A stretch of DNA of 64,000 nucleotides from an uncultured Pelagibacteraceae bacterium (GTDB lineage Bacteria > Pseudomonadota > Alphaproteobacteria > Pelagibacterales > Pelagibacteraceae): assembly GCA_902534465.1 (NCBI GenBank), contig CACAPU010000005.1:19999-83998 (forward strand). Direction: 5' to 3'. Positions 7,018-15,845 of the stretch are shown piece after piece. The notes under the pieces were generated by a model. The model had not been told where the DNA came from, did not search any database, and saw only the letters and a list, made by a program, of their open reading frames with translations. How positions within the stretch are numbered: the stretch's first letter is position 1; each line of letters opens with the position of its first letter. The translations under genes were made by a program, and so were the position numbers.

Positions 7018-8781
7018 ATGCCAACTTATAATGCACCTGTAGAAGATATGATGTTTCTCTTTGATAAATTGAGAAACAATAAAAAATATAATGAGATTGA
7101 AAAATACAAGGAAGTTAACTCAGAATTAGTAAAAGATATTTTGGATGAAGCAGCTAAAATAACTCAAAACTTAATTTTGCCTCTTGCAAAGAGTGGAGAT
7201 GAAACGCCTGCAGTTCTTGAAAATGGAGTTGTCAGAACACCCCCTGGATACAAAGAGGCTTACCAAAAATTTATAGAAGATGGATGGATTTCCTTATCTT
7301 GTGATCCAAAATACGGTGGACAGGGAATGCCAAAAACAGTCAGTACATTTTTTGATGAAATGCTTTCATCAGCAAGCTTGTCTTTTAAGCTATATAGTGA
7401 ACTAACAATTGGAGCATATAATTGTTTACTAAGACATGCAGATGAAGAAATAAAAAATACTTATTTACCCAAAATGGTAGAGGGGAAATGGAGTGGTACA
7501 ATGTGTCTTACAGAACCAGTATGTGGAACAGATTTAGGTCTGTTAAAAACTAAAGCTGTGGATCAAAAAGATGGAACATACAAGATAAGTGGACAAAAAA
7601 TTTTCATAACCTCAGGTGACCAAGATTTAACAGAAAATATTATTCATTTAGTGTTAGCTCGATCAACAGACTCTCCGGCAGGGACTAAAGGAATTAGTTT
7701 ATTTTTAGTTCCTAAATTCGTTTTGAATAAAGACGGATCTGTTGGACCAAGAAATGGTGTTTCAACAGGCTCTATTGAAAATAAAATGGGAATTAAAGGA
7801 TCTGCAACATGTGTTTTAAATTTTGATGATGCTGTTGGATACATGATTGGACCTAAAAATAAAGGTCTAAACTCTATGTTTACAATGATGAATTTAGAAA
7901 GAATAATTGTTGGGATTCAGGGACTTGGAATTTCAGAAATTGCATACCAAAATTCTCTTACTTATGCCAAAGAAAGAAAACAGGGGAAGGCATTTAATTC
8001 TAAATCAAACAATGGCGCAGATTTTATTATTGACCATGTTGATATAAGAAGATCACTTTTAAGCATGAAATCTATGATAGAAGGACAAAGAGCCTTGAGT
8101 TTCTGGCTGTCTCAGCAAATTGAGGTAAGTTTGAATCATTCTGATGAAAAAATAAAACAAGAGGCTTCAGATCTTGTTTCATTGATGACACCAGTTGTTA
8201 AATCACTTTTTACAGACAATGCAATGGAGATAACCAGTGAAGCAATGCAAATTCATGGAGGGTATGGATTTACAAAAGATCAAGGTATTGAGCAATTTTA
8301 TCGAGATAATAGAATTACACCTATCTATGAGGGAACAAATTCAGTTCAGGCGGCTGACTTAGTTTTTAGAAAGTTAATTAACAAAAATGGTGATGTTATT
8401 GAAAATTATTTAAACCTAGTTAAAGAAGAGATTAACATCACAGATAAAAAAGCAGAGCCATTTATTAAACAACTTAATTATCATTTAGATATTTTATCCA
8501 AATTTACTGATTGGATGAAAGAAAAAATCAAAAATTCTCCAGAGGATGCTAGTGGAGCATGTAATGATTATTTAAAAGTTTTAGGTTTAGTGGCTACAGG
8601 ACATGCATGGTTGAAAGTGCTTGAAGTTTCTTTTAAGGAATATGACAGCAATAAAGACTTTTATGAGGACAAAATTCAAACCGCAAACTTTTTCTTCAAT
8701 AGAGTACTTCCTAGAATAGAAAGTAGTTATATTACTGCTACAACTGGAAGTAATTATATTACGAACTATAAATTTAATTAG
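7018..8781 (+). CDS. dmdC: 3-methylmercaptopropionyl-CoA dehydrogenase (DmdC-type acyl-CoA dehydrogenase)
   Basis: FAD-dependent dehydrogenase of 587 residues. Long acyl-CoA dehydrogenases of this kind, with an extra C-terminal domain, include DmdC, which oxidises methylmercaptopropionyl-CoA to methylthioacryloyl-CoA in DMSP degradation. Visible parts are the N-terminal helical domain, the CLTEPVCGTDLGLLKTKA flavin region, GTKGISLFLVPKF, MGIKGSATCVLNFD, the QIHGGYGFTKD segment, and the catalytic glutamate in IYEGTNSVQA. The general fold is certain. The DmdC assignment rests on the family and on neighbouring dmdB (1 base downstream) and dmdA; a generic fadE-type role is the alternative. Confidence 0.88.
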   Translation: MPTYNAPVEDMMFLFDKLRNNKKYNEIEKYKEVNSELVKDILDEAAKITQNLILPLAKSGDETPAVLENGVVRTPPGYKEAYQKFIEDGWISLSCDPKYGGQGMPKTVSTFFDEMLSSASLSFKLYSELTIGAYNCLLRHADEEIKNTYLPKMVEGKWSGTMCLTEPVCGTDLGLLKTKAVDQKDGTYKISGQKIFITSGDQDLTENIIHLVLARSTDSPAGTKGISLFLVPKFVLNKDGSVGPRNGVSTGSIENKMGIKGSATCVLNFDDAVGYMIGPKNKGLNSMFTMMNLERIIVGIQGLGISEIAYQNSLTYAKERKQGKAFNSKSNNGADFIIDHVDIRRSLLSMKSMIEGQRALSFWLSQQIEVSLNHSDEKIKQEASDLVSLMTPVVKSLFTDNAMEITSEAMQIHGGYGFTKDQGIEQFYRDNRITPIYEGTNSVQAADLVFRKLINKNGDVIENYLNLVKEEINITDKKAEPFIKQLNYHLDILSKFTDWMKEKIKNSPEDASGACNDYLKVLGLVATGHAWLKVLEVSFKEYDSNKDFYEDKIQTANFFFNRVLPRIESSYITATTGSNYITNYKFN

Positions 8782-8782
8782 C

Positions 8783-10411
8783 ATGAACCATTATGAGACA
8801 AATCTGGATAAAAATGATGCTAATTATGTTCCATTAACGCCTTTATCGTTTTTAGAGAGGGCAAAAGATATTTACCCAAATTATGAGGCTGTAGTTTACG
8901 AGAGTAGAAAATATACTTGGAGCGAAGTTTATAAAAGATGTGTGAAGTTTGCCAGTGCACTAGATAAGATTGGTATTAAAACTGGTGACACAGTATCTGT
9001 TTTAGCGTTTAACACTCCAGAAATTTTTGAGGCACATTATTCTATTCCAATGGTTGGTGCAGTAATAAATGCAATTAATACAAGACTTGACTCTAAGACA
9101 ATAAGCTACATCTTAAATCACAGTGAGGCAAAAGTATTAATAGTAGATAGACAATTTCACGATGTAATCAAAAAAGCTTTAGAAGACGTGAAGCAGGAAA
9201 TTAAAATAATAGATATTGATGATAAAGATGCGAATTTAAAAGATTCTAAAGCAATAGGTTCTCTGGAATATGAAGATTTTCTAAATACAGGTGATCAGGA
9301 TTATATTTGGAAATTACCCAAAGATGAGTGGCAGGCAATTGCTTTAGGATATACATCAGGAACAACAGGGAATCCAAAAGGAGTAGTTTATCATCATAGA
9401 GGATCATATTTAATGGCAACAGGAAGTGCTGTTGCATGGAATATGCCTAATAAATTAAACTTTTTATACACAGTTCCAATGTTTCATTGTAATGGATGGT
9501 GCTATCCTTGGACAATGTCAATGATTCATGGAAGAGTCATATGTTTAAGAAACATTGATGTAAAAAAAATATTTGAGTTGATAGATAAATATGAAGTGAC
9601 TCATTTTGGAGGTGCTCCTATTGTTTTAAATATGTTGGCTAACGCACCAAAAGATCAACAAAAAGAATTAAAAAGAAAAGTTTACGTGTTAACTGCAGGC
9701 GCTCCTCCCCCTAGTATAATTTTTGAAAAAATGATAAAACTTGGATTTGAAGTAATGCATGTTTATGGTTTAACGGAAACTTATGGTCATATTTTACAAT
9801 GTGCATGGAATGACGAGTGGGATGGATTAGATCAAGACAATCAAAATGAAATCAAGGCTAGACAAGGTGTAAGATATCCAAACACGGAGGGTGTTGTTGT
9901 CATGGACCCAGAAACAATGAAACCAATACCACATGACGGAAAAACTATGGGTGAAATAATGATTAGAGGTAATGTTGTAATGAAAGGCTATTTTAAAGAT
10001 AAAGAGGCAACAGAAAAATCTATGGAAGGTGGATGGTTTCATTCAGGAGATTTAGCTGTAACTCATCCAAGTGGTTACATAAAAATTCAGGATAGGTCTA
10101 AAGATATTATTATATCTGGTGGAGAAAATATTTCATCTATTGAAATTGAAAATACAATATCAAAACACCCTGCAGTATCTCTAGCAGCAGTGGTTGCAAA
10201 GCCTGATGAGAAATGGGGAGAAACTCCATGTGCCTTTGTGGAGTTGATAGAAGGGAAATCTAGTACAGAGGAGGAAATTATTACTTTTTGTAGAGAAACC
10301 CTCGCTGGGTTTAAACTTCCAAAGAAAGTAGTATTTGCTCCATTGCCAAAGACATCAACGGGTAAAATTCAAAAGTTTGAATTAAGAAAACAAGCTAAAG
10401 AGCTTAGCTAA
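8783..10411 (+). CDS. dmdB: 3-methylmercaptopropionate-CoA ligase (DmdB-type acyl-CoA synthetase)
   Basis: Adenylate-forming acyl-CoA synthetase of 542 residues. It has the phosphate-binding loop YTSGTTGNPKGVVYHHRG (about residue 190), the MFHCNGWCYPW segment typical of the short/medium-chain group that includes DmdB, GLTETYGH, the hinge motif GGWFHSGDLAV, and the catalytic lysine in KTSTGKIQKFELRKQA. In the DMSP demethylation pathway this step activates methylmercaptopropionate with ATP and CoA. It begins 1 base after dmdC, and dmdA follows after 51 bases. Substrate is inferred from context. Confidence 0.88.
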   Translation: MNHYETNLDKNDANYVPLTPLSFLERAKDIYPNYEAVVYESRKYTWSEVYKRCVKFASALDKIGIKTGDTVSVLAFNTPEIFEAHYSIPMVGAVINAINTRLDSKTISYILNHSEAKVLIVDRQFHDVIKKALEDVKQEIKIIDIDDKDANLKDSKAIGSLEYEDFLNTGDQDYIWKLPKDEWQAIALGYTSGTTGNPKGVVYHHRGSYLMATGSAVAWNMPNKLNFLYTVPMFHCNGWCYPWTMSMIHGRVICLRNIDVKKIFELIDKYEVTHFGGAPIVLNMLANAPKDQQKELKRKVYVLTAGAPPPSIIFEKMIKLGFEVMHVYGLTETYGHILQCAWNDEWDGLDQDNQNEIKARQGVRYPNTEGVVVMDPETMKPIPHDGKTMGEIMIRGNVVMKGYFKDKEATEKSMEGGWFHSGDLAVTHPSGYIKIQDRSKDIIISGGENISSIEIENTISKHPAVSLAAVVAKPDEKWGETPCAFVELIEGKSSTEEEIITFCRETLAGFKLPKKVVFAPLPKTSTGKIQKFELRKQAKELS

Positions 10412-10462
10412 TATAGTTTCTTTACAAAATTGAAATAAGATGACAGTAATGCGGAAAAATAA

Positions 10463-11572
10463 ATGAAAAACTTTTTAATAGCCAAATCAAGAAGACTAAG
10501 GGGAACACCGTATACCTCTAGAATTGAGAAACAAGGTGTGACTGCTTACACCATTTATAATCATATGTTGTTGCCAGCAGCATTTGGTTCTGTGGAAGAT
10601 GCTTATCATCACTTGAAAGCGCATGTTCAAATTTGGGATGTTGCTGCTGAAAGACAAGTTGAAATTTCTGGTAAAGATTCTGCAAAATTAGTTCAATTAA
10701 TGACATGTAGAGATTTATCAAAATCTAAAGATGGAAGATGTTACTACTGCCCAATAATTGATGATAATGCTGGTTTAATAAATGATCCTGTAGTCTTACG
10801 ACTAAATGAAAATAGATGGTGGATTTCTTTAGCTGACTCAGATGTAATTTTATTTGCCAAAGGATTGGCGATTGGAAACAAATTTGATGTAAAAATTTCT
10901 GAACCTGATGTTGACATAATGGCAGTGCAAGGACCAAAATCATTTCAATTAATGGAAAAAGTTTTTGGAGAAAAAATTGTAAATTTAAAATTTTTTGGCT
11001 TTGATTATTTTGAATTTGGTGGAGATAAACATCTTATTGCAAAATCTGGATGGTCTAAACAAGGTGGCTATGAAATTTATATGGAACACAACGAGTCTGG
11101 TTTAAAATTATACGACCATCTTTTTGAAATTGGTAAAGAATTTAATATTAAACCAGGTGGACCAAATTTAATTGAACGTATTGAGAGTGGTTTACTTTCA
11201 CACGGTAATGACATGGACAATGGAGACAATCCATATGAATGTGGATTTGATAAATATATCAATATTGACAGTGACATAGATTTTTTAGGTAAAGAAAAAT
11301 TAAAGAAAATCAAATCAGAAGGAATTAAAAAAAAATTGATGGGAGTGAAAATTGATACTAAGGAAATAAATGTTACTGGTTCAATGGATTTAATTGATGA
11401 AAATAATCAAGTAATTGGAGAATTAAGATCCGGATGTTATAATCCAACATTTGGCCAAGTTATTGGAATTGCAATGATAAATAAACCTCACTTTGAGGAG
11501 TCGAAATCCTTCAAAATCAATATAAATGGTAATCATTTTGATGGAAAAGTTTGTGATTTACCTTTCATTTAG
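10463..11572 (+). CDS. dmdA: Dimethylsulfoniopropionate demethylase
   Basis: Transfers a methyl group from DMSP to tetrahydrofolate, giving methylmercaptopropionate and 5-methyl-THF. It is a 369-residue GcvT-fold protein and, as far as I can recall, its sequence is that of the structurally characterised Pelagibacter Dmd[21 protein letters not shown], then [17 protein letters not shown], and the [13 protein letters not shown] and [20 protein letters not shown] segments. GcvT itself is also in this fold family, but the N-terminus and the partners dmdC/dmdB favour DmdA. The gap upstream is 51 bases, the largest inside this gene group, so an internal promoter is possible though I see no strong one. 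Confidence 0.95.
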
Positions 11573-11590
11573 TATAAAACTCTAAATATC

Positions 11591-12601
11591 ATGAATATAG
11601 CAATAGTTGGTGCAACTGGAAACGTGGGTCGAAAATTAATTGAAGTTTTGGAAAAAAAAAATTTTCCTGTAACCGAAGCTTACTTAGTTGCTTCTCCAAA
11701 CAGTGCTGGAAAAAAAATACATTTTTTAGGCAAAGAACATACAGTAATAAACTTAGAAAAGTTTGATTTTTCAAAAGTAAAAATAACATTTTTTGCAGCT
11801 GGATCAGCAATAGCTGAAAAATGGGCACCAATAGCTGCTGAAAAAACAATCGTTATAGATAATTCAAAATTTTTTAGAAAAGATCCTGAAATACCTTTAA
11901 TTGTACCTGAAGTAAATTCAAAAGAATTACCAAAATTTAAAAATAAAAATATTATAGCAAATGCTAATTGTTCGGTAATTCCAATAGTTGTAGCTCTTAA
12001 ACCTTTACACGATTTATATAATGTCAAAAGAATAGTTGCATCTACTTACCAGTCAGTATCAGGCGCAGGAAAAGCTGGTATGGATGAACTGATATCTCAA
12101 ACAAAGGAAGTATTGGAAAACAAAAATGTTCAGTCTAAAAATTTTACTAAGCAGATAGCTTTCAATGCAATACCACATATCGATAGCTTTCTTGAAAACG
12201 GAAGTACAAAAGAGGAGCAAAAAAATCATGATGAAGTGAAAAAAATTTTAGATAATAAAATTAGTATTACCTCTACTTGTGTAAGAATTCCTGTTCTCGT
12301 ATCTCACTCAATAAGTGTGAATGTGGAATTTAATAAGAAACATAACTTAGAAGAGATAAAAACTATTTTATCATCATCTCCAGGATGTAAAGTAGTTGAT
12401 GAACATAAAGATGGTGGGTACATTACTCCAGTTGAAGCTGAAGATAAATTTGAAACATTCGTATCAAGAATTCGTGTTGACTCTTCACAACCTAATTCAA
12501 TTAATATGTGGATAGTATCAGATAATTTATTAAAAGGTGCTGCACTTAATGCTGTTGAAATCGCTGAAGCTTTAATAGAAAAAGATTTTTATGGAAGATA
12601 A
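11591..12601 (+). CDS. asd: Aspartate-semialdehyde dehydrogenase
   Basis: NADP-dependent reduction of aspartyl phosphate to aspartate semialdehyde, the branch point to lysine/DAP, threonine and methionine. It has 336 residues; VGATGNVGRKLIEVL is the nucleotide-binding loop, the catalytic cysteine is in NANCSVIPIV, and YQSVSGAGKAGMDEL and the RIPVLVSHS histidine region are conserved. It starts 18 bases after dmdA, and its 3' end overlaps sdhC by 11 bases, tying an amino-acid gene to the TCA operon. Confidence 0.98.
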   Translation: MNIAIVGATGNVGRKLIEVLEKKNFPVTEAYLVASPNSAGKKIHFLGKEHTVINLEKFDFSKVKITFFAAGSAIAEKWAPIAAEKTIVIDNSKFFRKDPEIPLIVPEVNSKELPKFKNKNIIANANCSVIPIVVALKPLHDLYNVKRIVASTYQSVSGAGKAGMDELISQTKEVLENKNVQSKNFTKQIAFNAIPHIDSFLENGSTKEEQKNHDEVKKILDNKISITSTCVRIPVLVSHSISVNVEFNKKHNLEEIKTILSSSPGCKVVDEHKDGGYITPVEAEDKFETFVSRIRVDSSQPNSINMWIVSDNLLKGAALNAVEIAEALIEKDFYGR

Positions 12602-12974
12602 AAATCCAATATCACCACATATACAGATTTATAACTGGCACATTTCCTCATTGGTTTCAATATCACATCGGATAACTGGTATAATTAATTTTTTTGCTAT
12701 TACTTTAATAGGTTTATGGATAGCTTCATTATTATTGGGTGAGGGTTATTATGAACACACAAGTTCTTTTTTGTCTTCTTTTTTCGGTAAATTTATTTGT
12801 ATTGGAATAATCTGGTCTTTTACATTTCAAGTTCTTAGTGAGATAAGGCATTTGGTAATGGACTTAGGATATGGTTTTGAACCCAAAACTACAAAAATAT
12901 CTGGATTGATTGTTTTGATTGGCTCTTTTCCAATATCAGTTTCAATTTACGCTATTGGAAGGTTAATAATTTAA
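12591..12974 (+). CDS. sdhC: Succinate dehydrogenase cytochrome b556-type subunit, heme ligand absent
   Basis: Membrane anchor of complex II, 127 residues, with three predicted membrane helices (about 28-50, 63-83 and 103-125). Quinone-site residues are kept (SISHRITG: Ser23 and Arg27, matching E. coli Ser27 and Arg31). The second helix aligns without gaps to E. coli (SFFGKFICIGI...IRHLVMDLGY), but the axial heme ligand His84 of E. coli is Gln80 here; the nearby His87 corresponds to E. coli His91, which is not the ligand. sdhD starts on the last base of its stop codon (TAATG). Confidence 0.95.
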   Translation: MEDKNPISPHIQIYNWHISSLVSISHRITGIINFFAITLIGLWIASLLLGEGYYEHTSSFLSSFFGKFICIGIIWSFTFQVLSEIRHLVMDLGYGFEPKTTKISGLIVLIGSFPISVSIYAIGRLII

Positions 12975-13297
12975 TGGGATCTGTAACTAAGAAATGGTTG
13001 TTTTTAAAAGTAAGTTCAGTAATTTTAATACCTTTAATGATATGGTTTTCAATGAGTTTGGCTTCTATTTATGACAAAAGCTATAATGAGGTTCTGACAT
13101 TTATATCTTTACAGTCATCCAAATTATTATTTAGCATGTTTTTGATTTTTGCATATTTTTTCTCTGCACTAAGCATAAGCGAGGTTTTTGAAGATTATAT
13201 TGAAGACAAAAATATCAAAAATGCCGCAAATAAAACCTTAAATATCTTTGCTATAGTATTTCCATTATTAATAATTATCTTAATATTTAATTTATAG
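12974..13297 (+). CDS. sdhD: Succinate dehydrogenase membrane anchor subunit, no histidines
   Basis: Second membrane anchor of complex II, 107 residues, with three hydrophobic helices (about 9-32, 50-70 and 86-106). The identification rests on its position between sdhC and sdhA and on VFEDYIED, which matches the family Asp-Tyr pair of the quinone site (E. coli Asp82-Tyr83, here Asp74-Tyr75). The heme-ligand histidine, 12 residues before that Tyr in E. coli (His71), is Phe63 here, and the protein has no histidine at all. See the finding on heme loss. Confidence 0.92.
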
Positions 13298-13299
13298 TT

Positions 13300-15075
13300 A
13301 TGAGTTCGTACAAAATAATTGATCATGAATATGATGTAGTTGTCTTGGGTGCTGGTGGCTCAGGTTTAAGAGCTGCAGTTGGCCTAAGTGAAGCTGGTCT
13401 AAAAACAGCCTGTGTGTCTAAAGTATTTCCCACAAGAAGTCATACTTCGGCTGCACAAGGAGGTATTTCTGCAGCGTTAGGAAATATGGGTGAGGATGAC
13501 TGGAGATGGCACATGTATGATACAGTTAAAGGTGCAGATTGGTTGGGCGACCAGGATTCAATAGAATATTTATGTAAAGAGGCTCCAGCAGCGGTGCTAG
13601 AATTAGAAAAGTATGGAGTTCCATTTAGTAGAACAGAGGATGGAAAAATTTATCAAAGACCTTTTGGGGGTATGACAAAAAATTATGGAAATGAGACAGT
13701 TCAGAGAACATGTGCTGCAGCTGATAGAACAGGACATGCAATACTTCACACTCTTTATGGCCAAGCTCTAAAGCACAATACTGAATTTTTTATTGAGTAC
13801 TTTGCTTTAGATTTAATAATGAAAGATGGAGCATGCAAAGGTTTGATTGCCTGGAACCTTAATGACGGGACCATACACAGATTCAGATCTCACATAACAA
13901 TTATTGCAACCGGAGGGTATGGGAAAGTATATTACTCAGCTACTTCTGCTCATACTTGTACTGGAGATGGTAATGCGATGGTTTTAAGAGCTGGTTTACC
14001 TTTACAAGACATGGAATTTGTACAATTTCACCCTACTGGCATATACGGCCATGGAACTTTAATTTCAGAAGGTGTTAGAGGTGAAGGAGGTTATTTAGTA
14101 AATTCAAAAGGTGAAAGATTTATGGAGCGTTACGCACCAAAAGCAAAAGATTTAGCATCAAGAGACGTAGTAAGTAGATCAATTGCGGTAGAAATAAATG
14201 AAGGTAGAGGTATAGGAAAAGAACAAGATCATGTTCATCTTCATATAGATCACTTAGACCCTAAAGTTATAGAAGAAAGATTACCAGGTATTTCTGAAGC
14301 TTCTAAATTATTTGCTAACGTTGATGTAACTAAGGAGCCAATACCAGTTGTTCCAACTGTGCATTACAACATGGGTGGAATACCAACAAATTATAAGGCT
14401 GAAGTTCTTACAGTCAATGGATCGGAGAAAACTGTTCCTGGTTTAATGGCGATCGGAGAAGCTGCATGTGTATCTGTTCATGGTGCTAATAGATTGGGCT
14501 CAAACTCATTAATTGATCTTGTAGTTTTTGGAAGAGCGGCTGCAAAAAGAGCTGCAGAACTTGTAAAACCAGGAATGAAACATGACGAAATCGATAAAAG
14601 TGAGACTGATAGATGTTTAGATAGATTTGATAAACTTAGAAACTCTCAAGGTTCTAACCCTACATCTGAACTTAGACTATCAATGCAAAAAACGATGCAG
14701 TCTAAATGTGCTGTATTTAGAAGTGAAAAGACATTAAAGGAAGGGGTTGATGAAATTAGAAAACCTTTTGAGGGCATGGAATCTTTGTCTGTTAAAGATA
14801 AATCATTAATATTTAATACAGATCTAGTCGAAACTTTAGAATTCGATAACTTGATTAGACAAGCGATTACTACTATGGACTCAGCTTATCACAGAAAAGA
14901 AAGTAGAGGAGCACATGCAAGAGAGGACTTTCCGAAAAGAGACGATGAAAATTATATGCAACATACTCTCTCATGGTGCAATGGCGCTAAAACAAAAATA
15001 AATTATAGACCAGTTCATAGATCAACACTAACTAATGATGTACAATATTTTCCTCCTCAGGAAAGAGTATATTAA
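13300..15075 (+). CDS. sdhA: Succinate dehydrogenase flavoprotein subunit
   Basis: Oxidises succinate to fumarate with covalently bound FAD. It has 591 residues; [16 protein letters not shown] is the FAD-binding loop, and His48 in [10 protein letters not shown] is the residue that binds FAD covalently. [29 protein letters not shown] and [11 protein letters not shown] form the active site, and [11 protein letters not shown] is the second FAD contact. It starts 2 bases after sdhD, and its stop codon overlaps the sdhB start (TAATG). All catalytic features look intact, so loss of heme in the anchors is not accompanied by decay of the enzyme. Confidence 0.98.
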
Positions 15076-15845
15076 TGGTACAGTTTAATTTACCGTCAAA
15101 CTCAAAAATAAAAAAAGGTCAATATTACAAAGATAAAACAGGATCAAAAAACATAAGAAAAGTAAATGTTTACAGATGGGATCCATCTAAAAATGAAAAT
15201 CCAAGAATTGATACTTATGAAGTTGATATGGATAATTGCTCTTCTAAAGTTTTAGATATTTTAAATAAAATCAAAAATGAAATTGATCCGTCTATTGCAT
15301 ATAGAAGATCATGTGCTCATGGAGTATGTGGGTCATGTGCAATGAATATGAATGGAAAGAATGGTCTAGCGTGTACCAAATCTCATTCTGAATTAGATGG
15401 AGATATCGATATTTATCCATTACCACATTTAAAAGTTTTAAAAGATTTAATTGGAGACTTAAGCATTCTTTACAAACAATACGAGTCAGTTGAACCTTGG
15501 CTAAAAACAACAAAAATAAATGACAAAGAAAACATTCAGACTAAAGAGGATAGAGCAAAATTAGATGGTTTATATGAGTGCATAATGTGTGCATGCTGTT
15601 CAACATCCTGCCCAAGTTATTGGTGGAATGGTGAAAAATATTTAGGTCCTGCAGTTTTACTTCAAGCTTATAGGTGGATAATTGATAGTAGAGACGAGGA
15701 CAGAAAAGAAAGACTTAAAAAAGTTGCTGACGAACTTAAACTTTATAGATGTCATACTATCTTGAATTGTACAAATGCATGCCCTAAGGGCCTAAATCCT
15801 GCAAAAGCTATTGCAGAGATAAAGAAAATGCTTGCAACAGCTTGA
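15075..15845 (+). CDS. sdhB: Succinate dehydrogenase iron-sulfur subunit
   Basis: Passes electrons from FAD to the quinone site through three clusters. Ligands are visible for [2Fe-2S] ([15 protein letters not shown]...GLAC), [4Fe-4S] ([12 protein letters not shown]) and [3Fe-4S] ([17 protein letters not shown]). It has 256 residues. The first motif reads SCAHG rather than the SCREG of mitochondrial and E. coli enzymes, a variant I also recall from other bacteria. It ends the sdhCDAB group; mmsA starts 24 bases later. Confidence 0.98.

What the first reader, a model, noticed from the sequence alone, without database searches (positions are those of the whole stretch)
12591..13297. Both heme-b axial histidines of succinate dehydrogenase are missing (SdhC Gln80, SdhD Phe63)
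Seen: SdhC aligns without gaps to E. coli SdhC across SFFGKFICIGI...IRHLVMDLGY, and the residue at the E. coli His84 position is Gln80. In SdhD the residue 12 before the conserved Asp-Tyr pair (E. coli His71) is Phe63, and the 107-residue protein has no histidine. Known: E. coli complex II holds heme b between SdhC His84 and SdhD His71. Inference: this complex II binds no heme b, or binds it in another way, while quinone-site residues (SdhC Ser23, Arg27; SdhD Asp74, Tyr75) and all SdhA/SdhB cofactors are kept. Correlated loss of both ligands argues for real adaptation, for example iron saving in an ocean bacterium, rather than error.
Basis: partly seen in the sequence, partly recalled or inferred. 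Interest (0 to 1): 0.72.

Follow-up and report, generated by a model that had tools for sequence, protein, structure and literature searches.

The report
SAR11 succinate dehydrogenase without heme site
In the window's ocean bacterium and almost all its close SAR11 relatives, the energy enzyme succinate dehydrogenase has lost both amino acids that normally hold its heme, and a conserved Glu next to a Lys appears to take the heme's structural place, much as happened independently in baker's yeast.

Summary
SdhC has Gln80 and SdhD has Phe63 where E. coli has His84 and His71. The register is gap-free against the solved E. coli chains, and SdhD contains no histidine. It is not a one-genome oddity: of 165 SAR11 (Pelagibacterales) genomes, not deduplicated between two sets, 139 share the altered site. 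A graded series shows SdhD His71 lost first, together with SdhC Gly88→Glu, and SdhC His84 lost later at least four times. All but one of 88 other alphaproteobacteria keep both His and the neighbouring Gly. Of 41 conserved SdhC/SdhD columns only seven change in this clade, and six of those line the heme pocket; no quinone-site residue changes. The genes are under purifying selection. Ferrochelatase and bc1 cytochrome b remain. The best reading is a working but heme-free complex II, with SdhC Glu84–SdhD Lys12 as a probable stand-in for heme propionate contacts, mirroring the Glu–Arg bridge of the heme-free yeast enzyme. The iron-saving motive is unsupported: heme is 1 of 10 iron atoms, and an uncultured SAR11 cell of the same survey keeps both His. 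Absence of heme has not been measured. I found no earlier report of this in bacteria in the library searched.

The parts
12591..12974 (+). sdhC, large membrane anchor of succinate dehydrogenase, 127 aa
   Evidence: TIGR02970 115.8 bits (cut-off 52.3), PF01127 95.5 bits; aligns to 1NEK chain C, E 2.7e-15
12828..12830 (+). SdhC Gln80, at the position of heme ligand His84 of E. coli
   Evidence: gap-free alignment to 1NEK_C; in the 139 loss-clade genomes Gln 117, His 21, Phe 1
12840..12842 (+). SdhC Glu84, replacing the otherwise conserved Gly88 one helical turn from the ligand; proposed stand-in for a heme propionate carboxylate
   Evidence: Glu in 140/140 genomes without SdhD His71, never in 113 genomes with it
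12849..12851 (+). SdhC His87 = E. coli His91, propionate neighbour; only invariant His in the membrane helices
   Evidence: role in E. coli from PMC3290573
12657..12671 (+). SdhC Ser23 and Arg27 (and His26): quinone-site Ser27/Arg31, kept
   Evidence: Ser27 and Arg31 invariant in all genomes tabulated
12974..13297 (+). sdhD, small membrane anchor, 107 aa, no histidine
   Evidence: TIGR02968 47.8 bits (cut-off 41.8); profile match to 1NEK_D E 1.6e-10; AlphaFold/Foldseek TM 0.85
13007..13009 (+). SdhD Lys12, at E. coli Arg20 (propionate contact); proposed partner of SdhC Glu84
   Evidence: Lys in 135, Arg in 4 of 139 loss genomes; Arg in 17/19 and 84/87 keepers
13016..13018 (+). SdhD Ser15, at E. 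coli Ala23, which touches the heme edge
   Evidence: Ala kept in 84-86% of keepers, 1 of 139 in the loss clade; heme contact from PMC3290573
13160..13162 (+). SdhD Phe63, at the position of heme ligand His71
   Evidence: Phe 128, Tyr 9, Asn 2 in the clade; His in all 88 other alphaproteobacteria tabulated
13172..13174 (+). SdhD Ser67, replacing Gly75 (the glycine that is Glu112 in yeast Sdh4)
   Evidence: yeast residue from PMC13066397
13193..13198 (+). SdhD Asp74-Tyr75, quinone-site Asp82/Tyr83, kept
   Evidence: invariant in all genomes tabulated
13300..15075 (+). sdhA, flavoprotein subunit, FAD His48 kept
   Evidence: TIGR01816 948 bits; motif [11 protein letters not shown]
15075..15845 (+). 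sdhB, iron-sulfur subunit; cluster cysteines, Trp-Trp and His227 of the quinone site kept
   Evidence: NF004616 351 bits; motifs

Best explanation
This is a working four-subunit succinate:ubiquinone oxidoreductase descended from the ordinary one-heme (type C) enzyme, whose membrane part no longer holds heme b. Electrons run from succinate to FAD, through the three iron-sulfur clusters of SdhB, straight to ubiquinone; in E. coli the heme lies off that path. The space and contacts left by the heme are taken over by side chains: Gln80 and Phe63 in place of the ligands, Glu84 and Ser67 in place of the two glycines, and probably a Glu84-Lys12 ionic pair between SdhC and SdhD where heme propionate and Arg20 met. 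Shown here: the residue changes, their clade-wide fixation, their order and the purifying selection. Inferred: absence of heme (about 0.85), the Glu84-Lys12 contact (about 0.6), and that the change is structural replacement rather than iron saving.
For: Both ligands are absent in a gap-free alignment. SdhD has no His, and no second conserved His is available in the membrane helices. Of 41 columns conserved in heme-site keepers only seven change in the loss clade: SdhC 84, 88, 129 and SdhD 20, 23, 71, 75. Six are heme-pocket positions; hypergeometric p 1.2e-4, ignoring shared ancestry. SdhC Glu88 and loss of SdhD His71 coincide in 140 of 140 genomes, against 0 of 113 with His71, including one lineage (g7, one genome) that sits apart in the SdhA tree. 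Gln84 and Glu88 do not vary among the first 70 Gln84 genomes examined, while many other positions do, and Glu88 is invariant in all 139, so it looks selected rather than relaxed. Side-chain volume at 16 pocket positions rises by about 160-180 cubic A. The yeast enzyme, heme-free by cryo-EM, replaced the corresponding SdhD Gly by Glu112, which binds Arg97 in place of a propionate (PMC13066397). A heme-free E. coli variant works and supports growth on succinate (PMC3290573).
Against: No spectrum or structure of a SAR11 complex II was found. E. coli mutants lacking one ligand are reported to keep heme (title of Maklashina 2001, cited in PMC3290573 and PMC13066397), so missing ligands do not prove missing heme. 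SdhC His87 and mostly His26 remain. The SdhC-SdhD contact could not be modelled because only single chains can be folded here. Shared ancestry inflates all counts; the main clade may be a single event (one origin not rejected, p-AU 0.28).
Confidence: 0.82

Rival explanations
1. Heme b is still bound, five-coordinate or held by another ligand such as SdhC His87 or His26, so only the ligation has changed.
For: SdhC His87 is invariant and His26 kept in 135 of 139 loss genomes. E. coli single-ligand mutants are reported to keep heme (reference cited in PMC3290573).
Against: In E. coli His91 (=His87) contacts a propionate and His30 (=His26) packs on a pyrrole ring (PMC3290573). His26 is Thr or Gln in 4 genomes. 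Both heme-packing glycines are replaced by bulkier residues, and a Glu at Gly88 would crowd the ring. SdhD offers no conserved His.
Confidence: 0.12
2. The heme was dropped to save iron in an iron-poor ocean (a rival on motive, compatible with the best explanation's anatomy).
For: The loss is concentrated in marine SAR11; SAR11 transcription responds to iron addition (PMC11069385).
Against: Only one of ten iron atoms of complex II would be saved. An uncultured single-cell SAR11 genome of the same survey (L250) keeps the full site. Ferrochelatase and cytochrome b of complex III are kept. The same loss occurs outside the sea: yeast (PMC13066397) and a Rhizobiaceae-type genus.
Confidence: 0.12
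3. Neutral replacement (a rival on motive): the heme is not needed for turnover, so once side chains could hold the two subunits together the heme site decayed without any advantage.
For: Heme is dispensable in E. coli (PMC3290573). Stepwise order: His71 with Glu88 first, His84 later by at least four separate changes to Gln or Phe. Repeated independent losses in g7, g15, f77 and g146.
Against: Glu88, and Gln84 once gained in the window's genus, are invariant rather than drifting. Heme-keeping sister genera are equally streamlined in genome size.
Confidence: 0.45
4. The anchor subunits are degenerate and SdhCD no longer reduces quinone.
For: Very low identity of SdhD to characterised SdhD.
Against: Quinone-site residues invariant in all genomes; dN/dS 0.05-0.28; family scores over curated cut-offs; single copy in the genome.
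Confidence: 0.02

Closest known systems
Saccharomyces cerevisiae complex II (heme-free type C; PMC13066397)
   Same: Type C fold and quinone site; small-subunit ligand lost; an otherwise conserved Gly four residues from the ligand became Glu, binding the other subunit's Arg in place of a propionate.
   Different: Yeast keeps the large-subunit His (paired with Tyr108). The window has lost both His and places the Glu on SdhC, not SdhD. The SAR11 relatives with SdhC His plus SdhD Phe are the closer match. Yeast lack of heme is measured, SAR11's is inferred.
Escherichia coli succinate dehydrogenase SdhCDAB (type C)
   Same: Same four genes, quinone-site residues, FAD and cluster ligands; gap-free alignment of both anchors in the helices that hold the heme.
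   Different: E. coli has bis-His heme b; here both ligands, both packing glycines, SdhD Arg20 and Ala23 are changed.
Engineered heme-free E. coli Sdh variant (Tran et al. 2007, cited in PMC3290573)
   Same: Axial ligand replacement giving an active heme-free enzyme.
   Different: Laboratory variant with lowered rate; the paper itself is not held in the library, so its exact substitutions were not checked.
Tetrahymena complex II (PMC10227065) and E. coli fumarate reductase (type D)
   Same: Two core anchor subunits, no heme.
   Different: Tetrahymena fills the site with cardiolipin and has a rebuilt anchor; FrdC/FrdD are a different anchor family (PF02313 only 17.8 bits, below its cut-off of 25).

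Membership tests
Type C succinate:quinone oxidoreductase | two three-helix membrane subunits of the SdhC/SdhD families | tested here: met
   TIGR02970 115.8 bits, TIGR02968 47.8 bits, both over cut-off; AlphaFold/Foldseek matches to E. coli, pig, human and yeast chains
Type C succinate:quinone oxidoreductase | one axial heme ligand from each membrane subunit | tested here: not met
   Gln80 and Phe63
Type C succinate:quinone oxidoreductase | one heme b bound | not testable with these tools
   needs spectroscopy or a structure
Type C succinate:quinone oxidoreductase | quinone-site Ser/Arg (SdhC), Asp/Tyr (SdhD), Trp and His (SdhB) | tested here: met
Heme-free type C enzyme (yeast kind) | loss of at least one axial His, with Glu replacing the Gly one turn away | tested here: met
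   both His lost; Gly88 to Glu on SdhC (yeast: on Sdh4)
Heme-free type C enzyme (yeast kind) | Glu binds the partner subunit's Arg/Lys in place of a propionate | not testable with these tools
   two-chain model not available; inferred from the pseudo-twofold equivalence of SdhC R31 and SdhD R20 stated in PMC3290573
Type D (heme-less, fumarate reductase kind) | anchors of the FrdC/FrdD families | tested here: not met
   PF02313 17.8 bits against a cut-off of 25; PF01127 95.5 bits

The most novel reading that the evidence does not exclude
The main SAR11 lineage, among the most abundant cells in the sea, runs its Krebs cycle on a complex II that lost heme b stepwise and replaced its structural role with a Glu-Lys bridge between the two anchors: a bacterial, mirror-image convergence on the yeast solution, with living intermediates for each step.
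Probability: 0.55. Interest if true: 0.75.

Novelty: new variant of a known kind. Interest (0 to 1): 0.64.

Why it matters
What the heme of complex II is for has stayed open: it is off the electron path, yet conserved almost everywhere. SAR11 gives a natural series, with both His, then SdhC His only, then none, on closely related proteins, so heme's role in assembly, stability and superoxide control becomes testable with matched natural enzymes. It also means automatic annotation names these proteins 'cytochrome b556' (TIGR02970) although the heme site is gone, and iron or heme budgets for SAR11 should not count this heme without a check.

Tried and rejected
SdhD alone against the PDB gave only chance hits; a profile was needed. 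The paper on the heme-free E. coli variant and a 2010 follow-up are not held. A second genome for the independent losses g7 and f77 was sought and none with an sdhC was found, so each rests on one genome. Sequencing error, pseudogene and a second hidden sdhC copy were considered and rejected. Loss of heme synthesis as the cause was rejected. Paper searches found no report of a missing heme site in SAR11 complex II; absence from this open-licence library does not prove it is unpublished. The SdhC single-chain model is weaker evidence for register than the sequence alignment (TM 0.56-0.70 to E. coli chains, rmsd 5.6-8.3 A).

Full report
What is there. The window holds sdhC 12591-12974, sdhD 12974-13297, sdhA 13300-15075 and sdhB 15075-15845 in one run on the + strand. 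The proteins match the succinate dehydrogenase families above curated cut-offs. The genome (76.6% complete) carries one detected sdhC. It is a SAR11 genome: the nearest named record is the single-cell genome AG-900-O06, 'uncultured Pelagibacteraceae', with 98% identical SdhC.

The observation. SdhC aligns to E. coli 1NEK chain C with no gap in the second membrane helix, so Gln80 stands at His84. A profile of 20 SdhD proteins aligns to 1NEK chain D without a gap over residues 11-113, so Phe63 stands at His71. The single-chain AlphaFold model of SdhD (pLDDT 93) superposes on E. coli SdhD with TM 0.85-0.86 and rmsd 1.6-1.7 A, so the register is structurally sound. SdhD has no His.

How widespread. 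I tabulated heme-site residues in 253 genomes: 103 Pelagibacterales from the genome search, 62 named Pelagibacterales contigs, and 88 other alphaproteobacteria. The two Pelagibacterales sets may share species. All 88 others but one keep SdhC His84 and Gly88, and all 88 keep SdhD His71. Of the 165 Pelagibacterales, 117 have SdhC Gln84 with SdhD Phe, Tyr or Asn; 21 have SdhC His84 with SdhD Phe; 1 has Phe/Phe; 1 has Tyr/Asn; 6 have SdhC Tyr with SdhD His; 19 keep both His.

Order of events. On a maximum-likelihood tree of SdhA, a subunit not part of the trait, the losers together with six genomes that keep both His form one 71-row clade. A single origin of the Glu88/non-His71 state is not rejected (p-AU 0.28). 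Within it SdhC His84 changed later: to Gln in the window's genus, in part of g2 and in one g4 genome, and to Phe in one named cell, hence at least four secondary changes if the origin is single. Separate from that clade are g7 (Tyr/Asn, one genome), g15 (SdhC Tyr, six genomes, beside His-keeping g16) and f77 (SdhC Tyr, SdhD Glu75, one genome).

It is a remodelled site, not decay. Among 41 columns conserved in keepers only seven change in the loss clade: SdhC 84, 88, 129 and SdhD 20, 23, 71, 75. Six are heme contacts or the glycine one turn from a ligand; the chance of six or more of seven is 1.2e-4 if columns were independent, which shared ancestry makes optimistic. No quinone-site column changes. 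Glu at SdhC 88 coincides with absence of SdhD His71 in 140 of 140 genomes and is absent in all 113 with His71. Summed side-chain volume at 16 pocket positions, some chosen by helical phase, rises from 2037-2059 to 2217 cubic A. dN/dS of sdhC and sdhD between the window and close relatives is 0.05-0.28.

Mechanism. In E. coli the heme is off the route from the [3Fe-4S] cluster to ubiquinone, and a heme-free variant still works and supports growth on succinate, although heme stabilises the isolated enzyme (PMC3290573). In the yeast cryo-EM structure there is no heme; Glu112 of Sdh4 replaces a glycine and binds Arg97 of Sdh3 in place of a heme propionate (PMC13066397). Arg97 corresponds to SdhC Arg31 (inferred from its quinone-site role), and PMC3290573 states that SdhC Arg31 and SdhD Arg20 occupy equivalent positions about a pseudo-twofold axis. 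The mirror of the yeast pair is therefore SdhC position 88 with SdhD position 20, exactly the pair that became Glu and Lys in SAR11. This is inference; a two-chain model was not available.

Why it was lost. Heme is still made and used: ferrochelatase and bc1 cytochrome b are present in the window's genome and in losers and keepers alike. Iron saving is weak: one of ten iron atoms (established cofactor content of complex II), and an uncultured SAR11 cell (L250, AG-439-C13) keeps the full site. Neutral replacement after a stabilising Glu is at least as likely. In 50 further Pseudomonadota loci, wherever both residues could be read they are His, with one exception, which led to a Rhizobiaceae-type genus; see the noticed items.

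Closeness to the known. It works like a type C enzyme but fails the ligand criterion of that type; its anchors are not of the fumarate reductase kind. It belongs with the heme-free subdivision of type C that the yeast authors call for. I found no report of this in bacteria in the library. Remaining uncertainty: heme content is unmeasured.

Noticed in passing
Eight of those have SdhD His71 to Tyr; others have SdhD Gly75 to Glu or Thr, or SdhC Gly88 to Cys, Ser or Asp. The ferrochelatase-bearing ones that could be read keep the standard residues. Heme auxotrophy may lead to loss of the complex II heme site.
   Followed up: partly
L174 (G437, family f77), 1.4 Mb alphaproteobacterium: SdhC His84 to Tyr and SdhD Gly75 to Glu with SdhD His71 kept: the same Glu position as yeast Glu112. 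One genome only.
   Followed up: partly
L111-L116 (family f2, genus g15): Six Pelagibacterales genomes have SdhC Tyr84 and Cys88 with SdhD His71 and Gly75 kept: a half-lost site of the opposite polarity to the window's clade.
   Followed up: partly
window 12591-12974, SdhC: Two other conserved SdhC columns shift in the loss clade without explanation: E. coli position 94 Trp to Met (99 of 139) and position 129 Trp to Tyr/Phe.
   Followed up: no
window 7018-11572: A DMSP demethylase dmdA (10463-11572, NF009133 570 bits) directly follows an acyl-CoA synthetase (8783-10411) and an acyl-CoA dehydrogenase (7018-8781), probably DMSP/MMPA genes, between leuC/leuB and the Krebs-cycle cluster.
   Followed up: partly
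window 12591-12601 and 12974: The start of sdhC overlaps the end of asd by 11 bases, and sdhD starts on the last base of the sdhC stop codon; tight packing typical of a streamlined genome.
   Followed up: no
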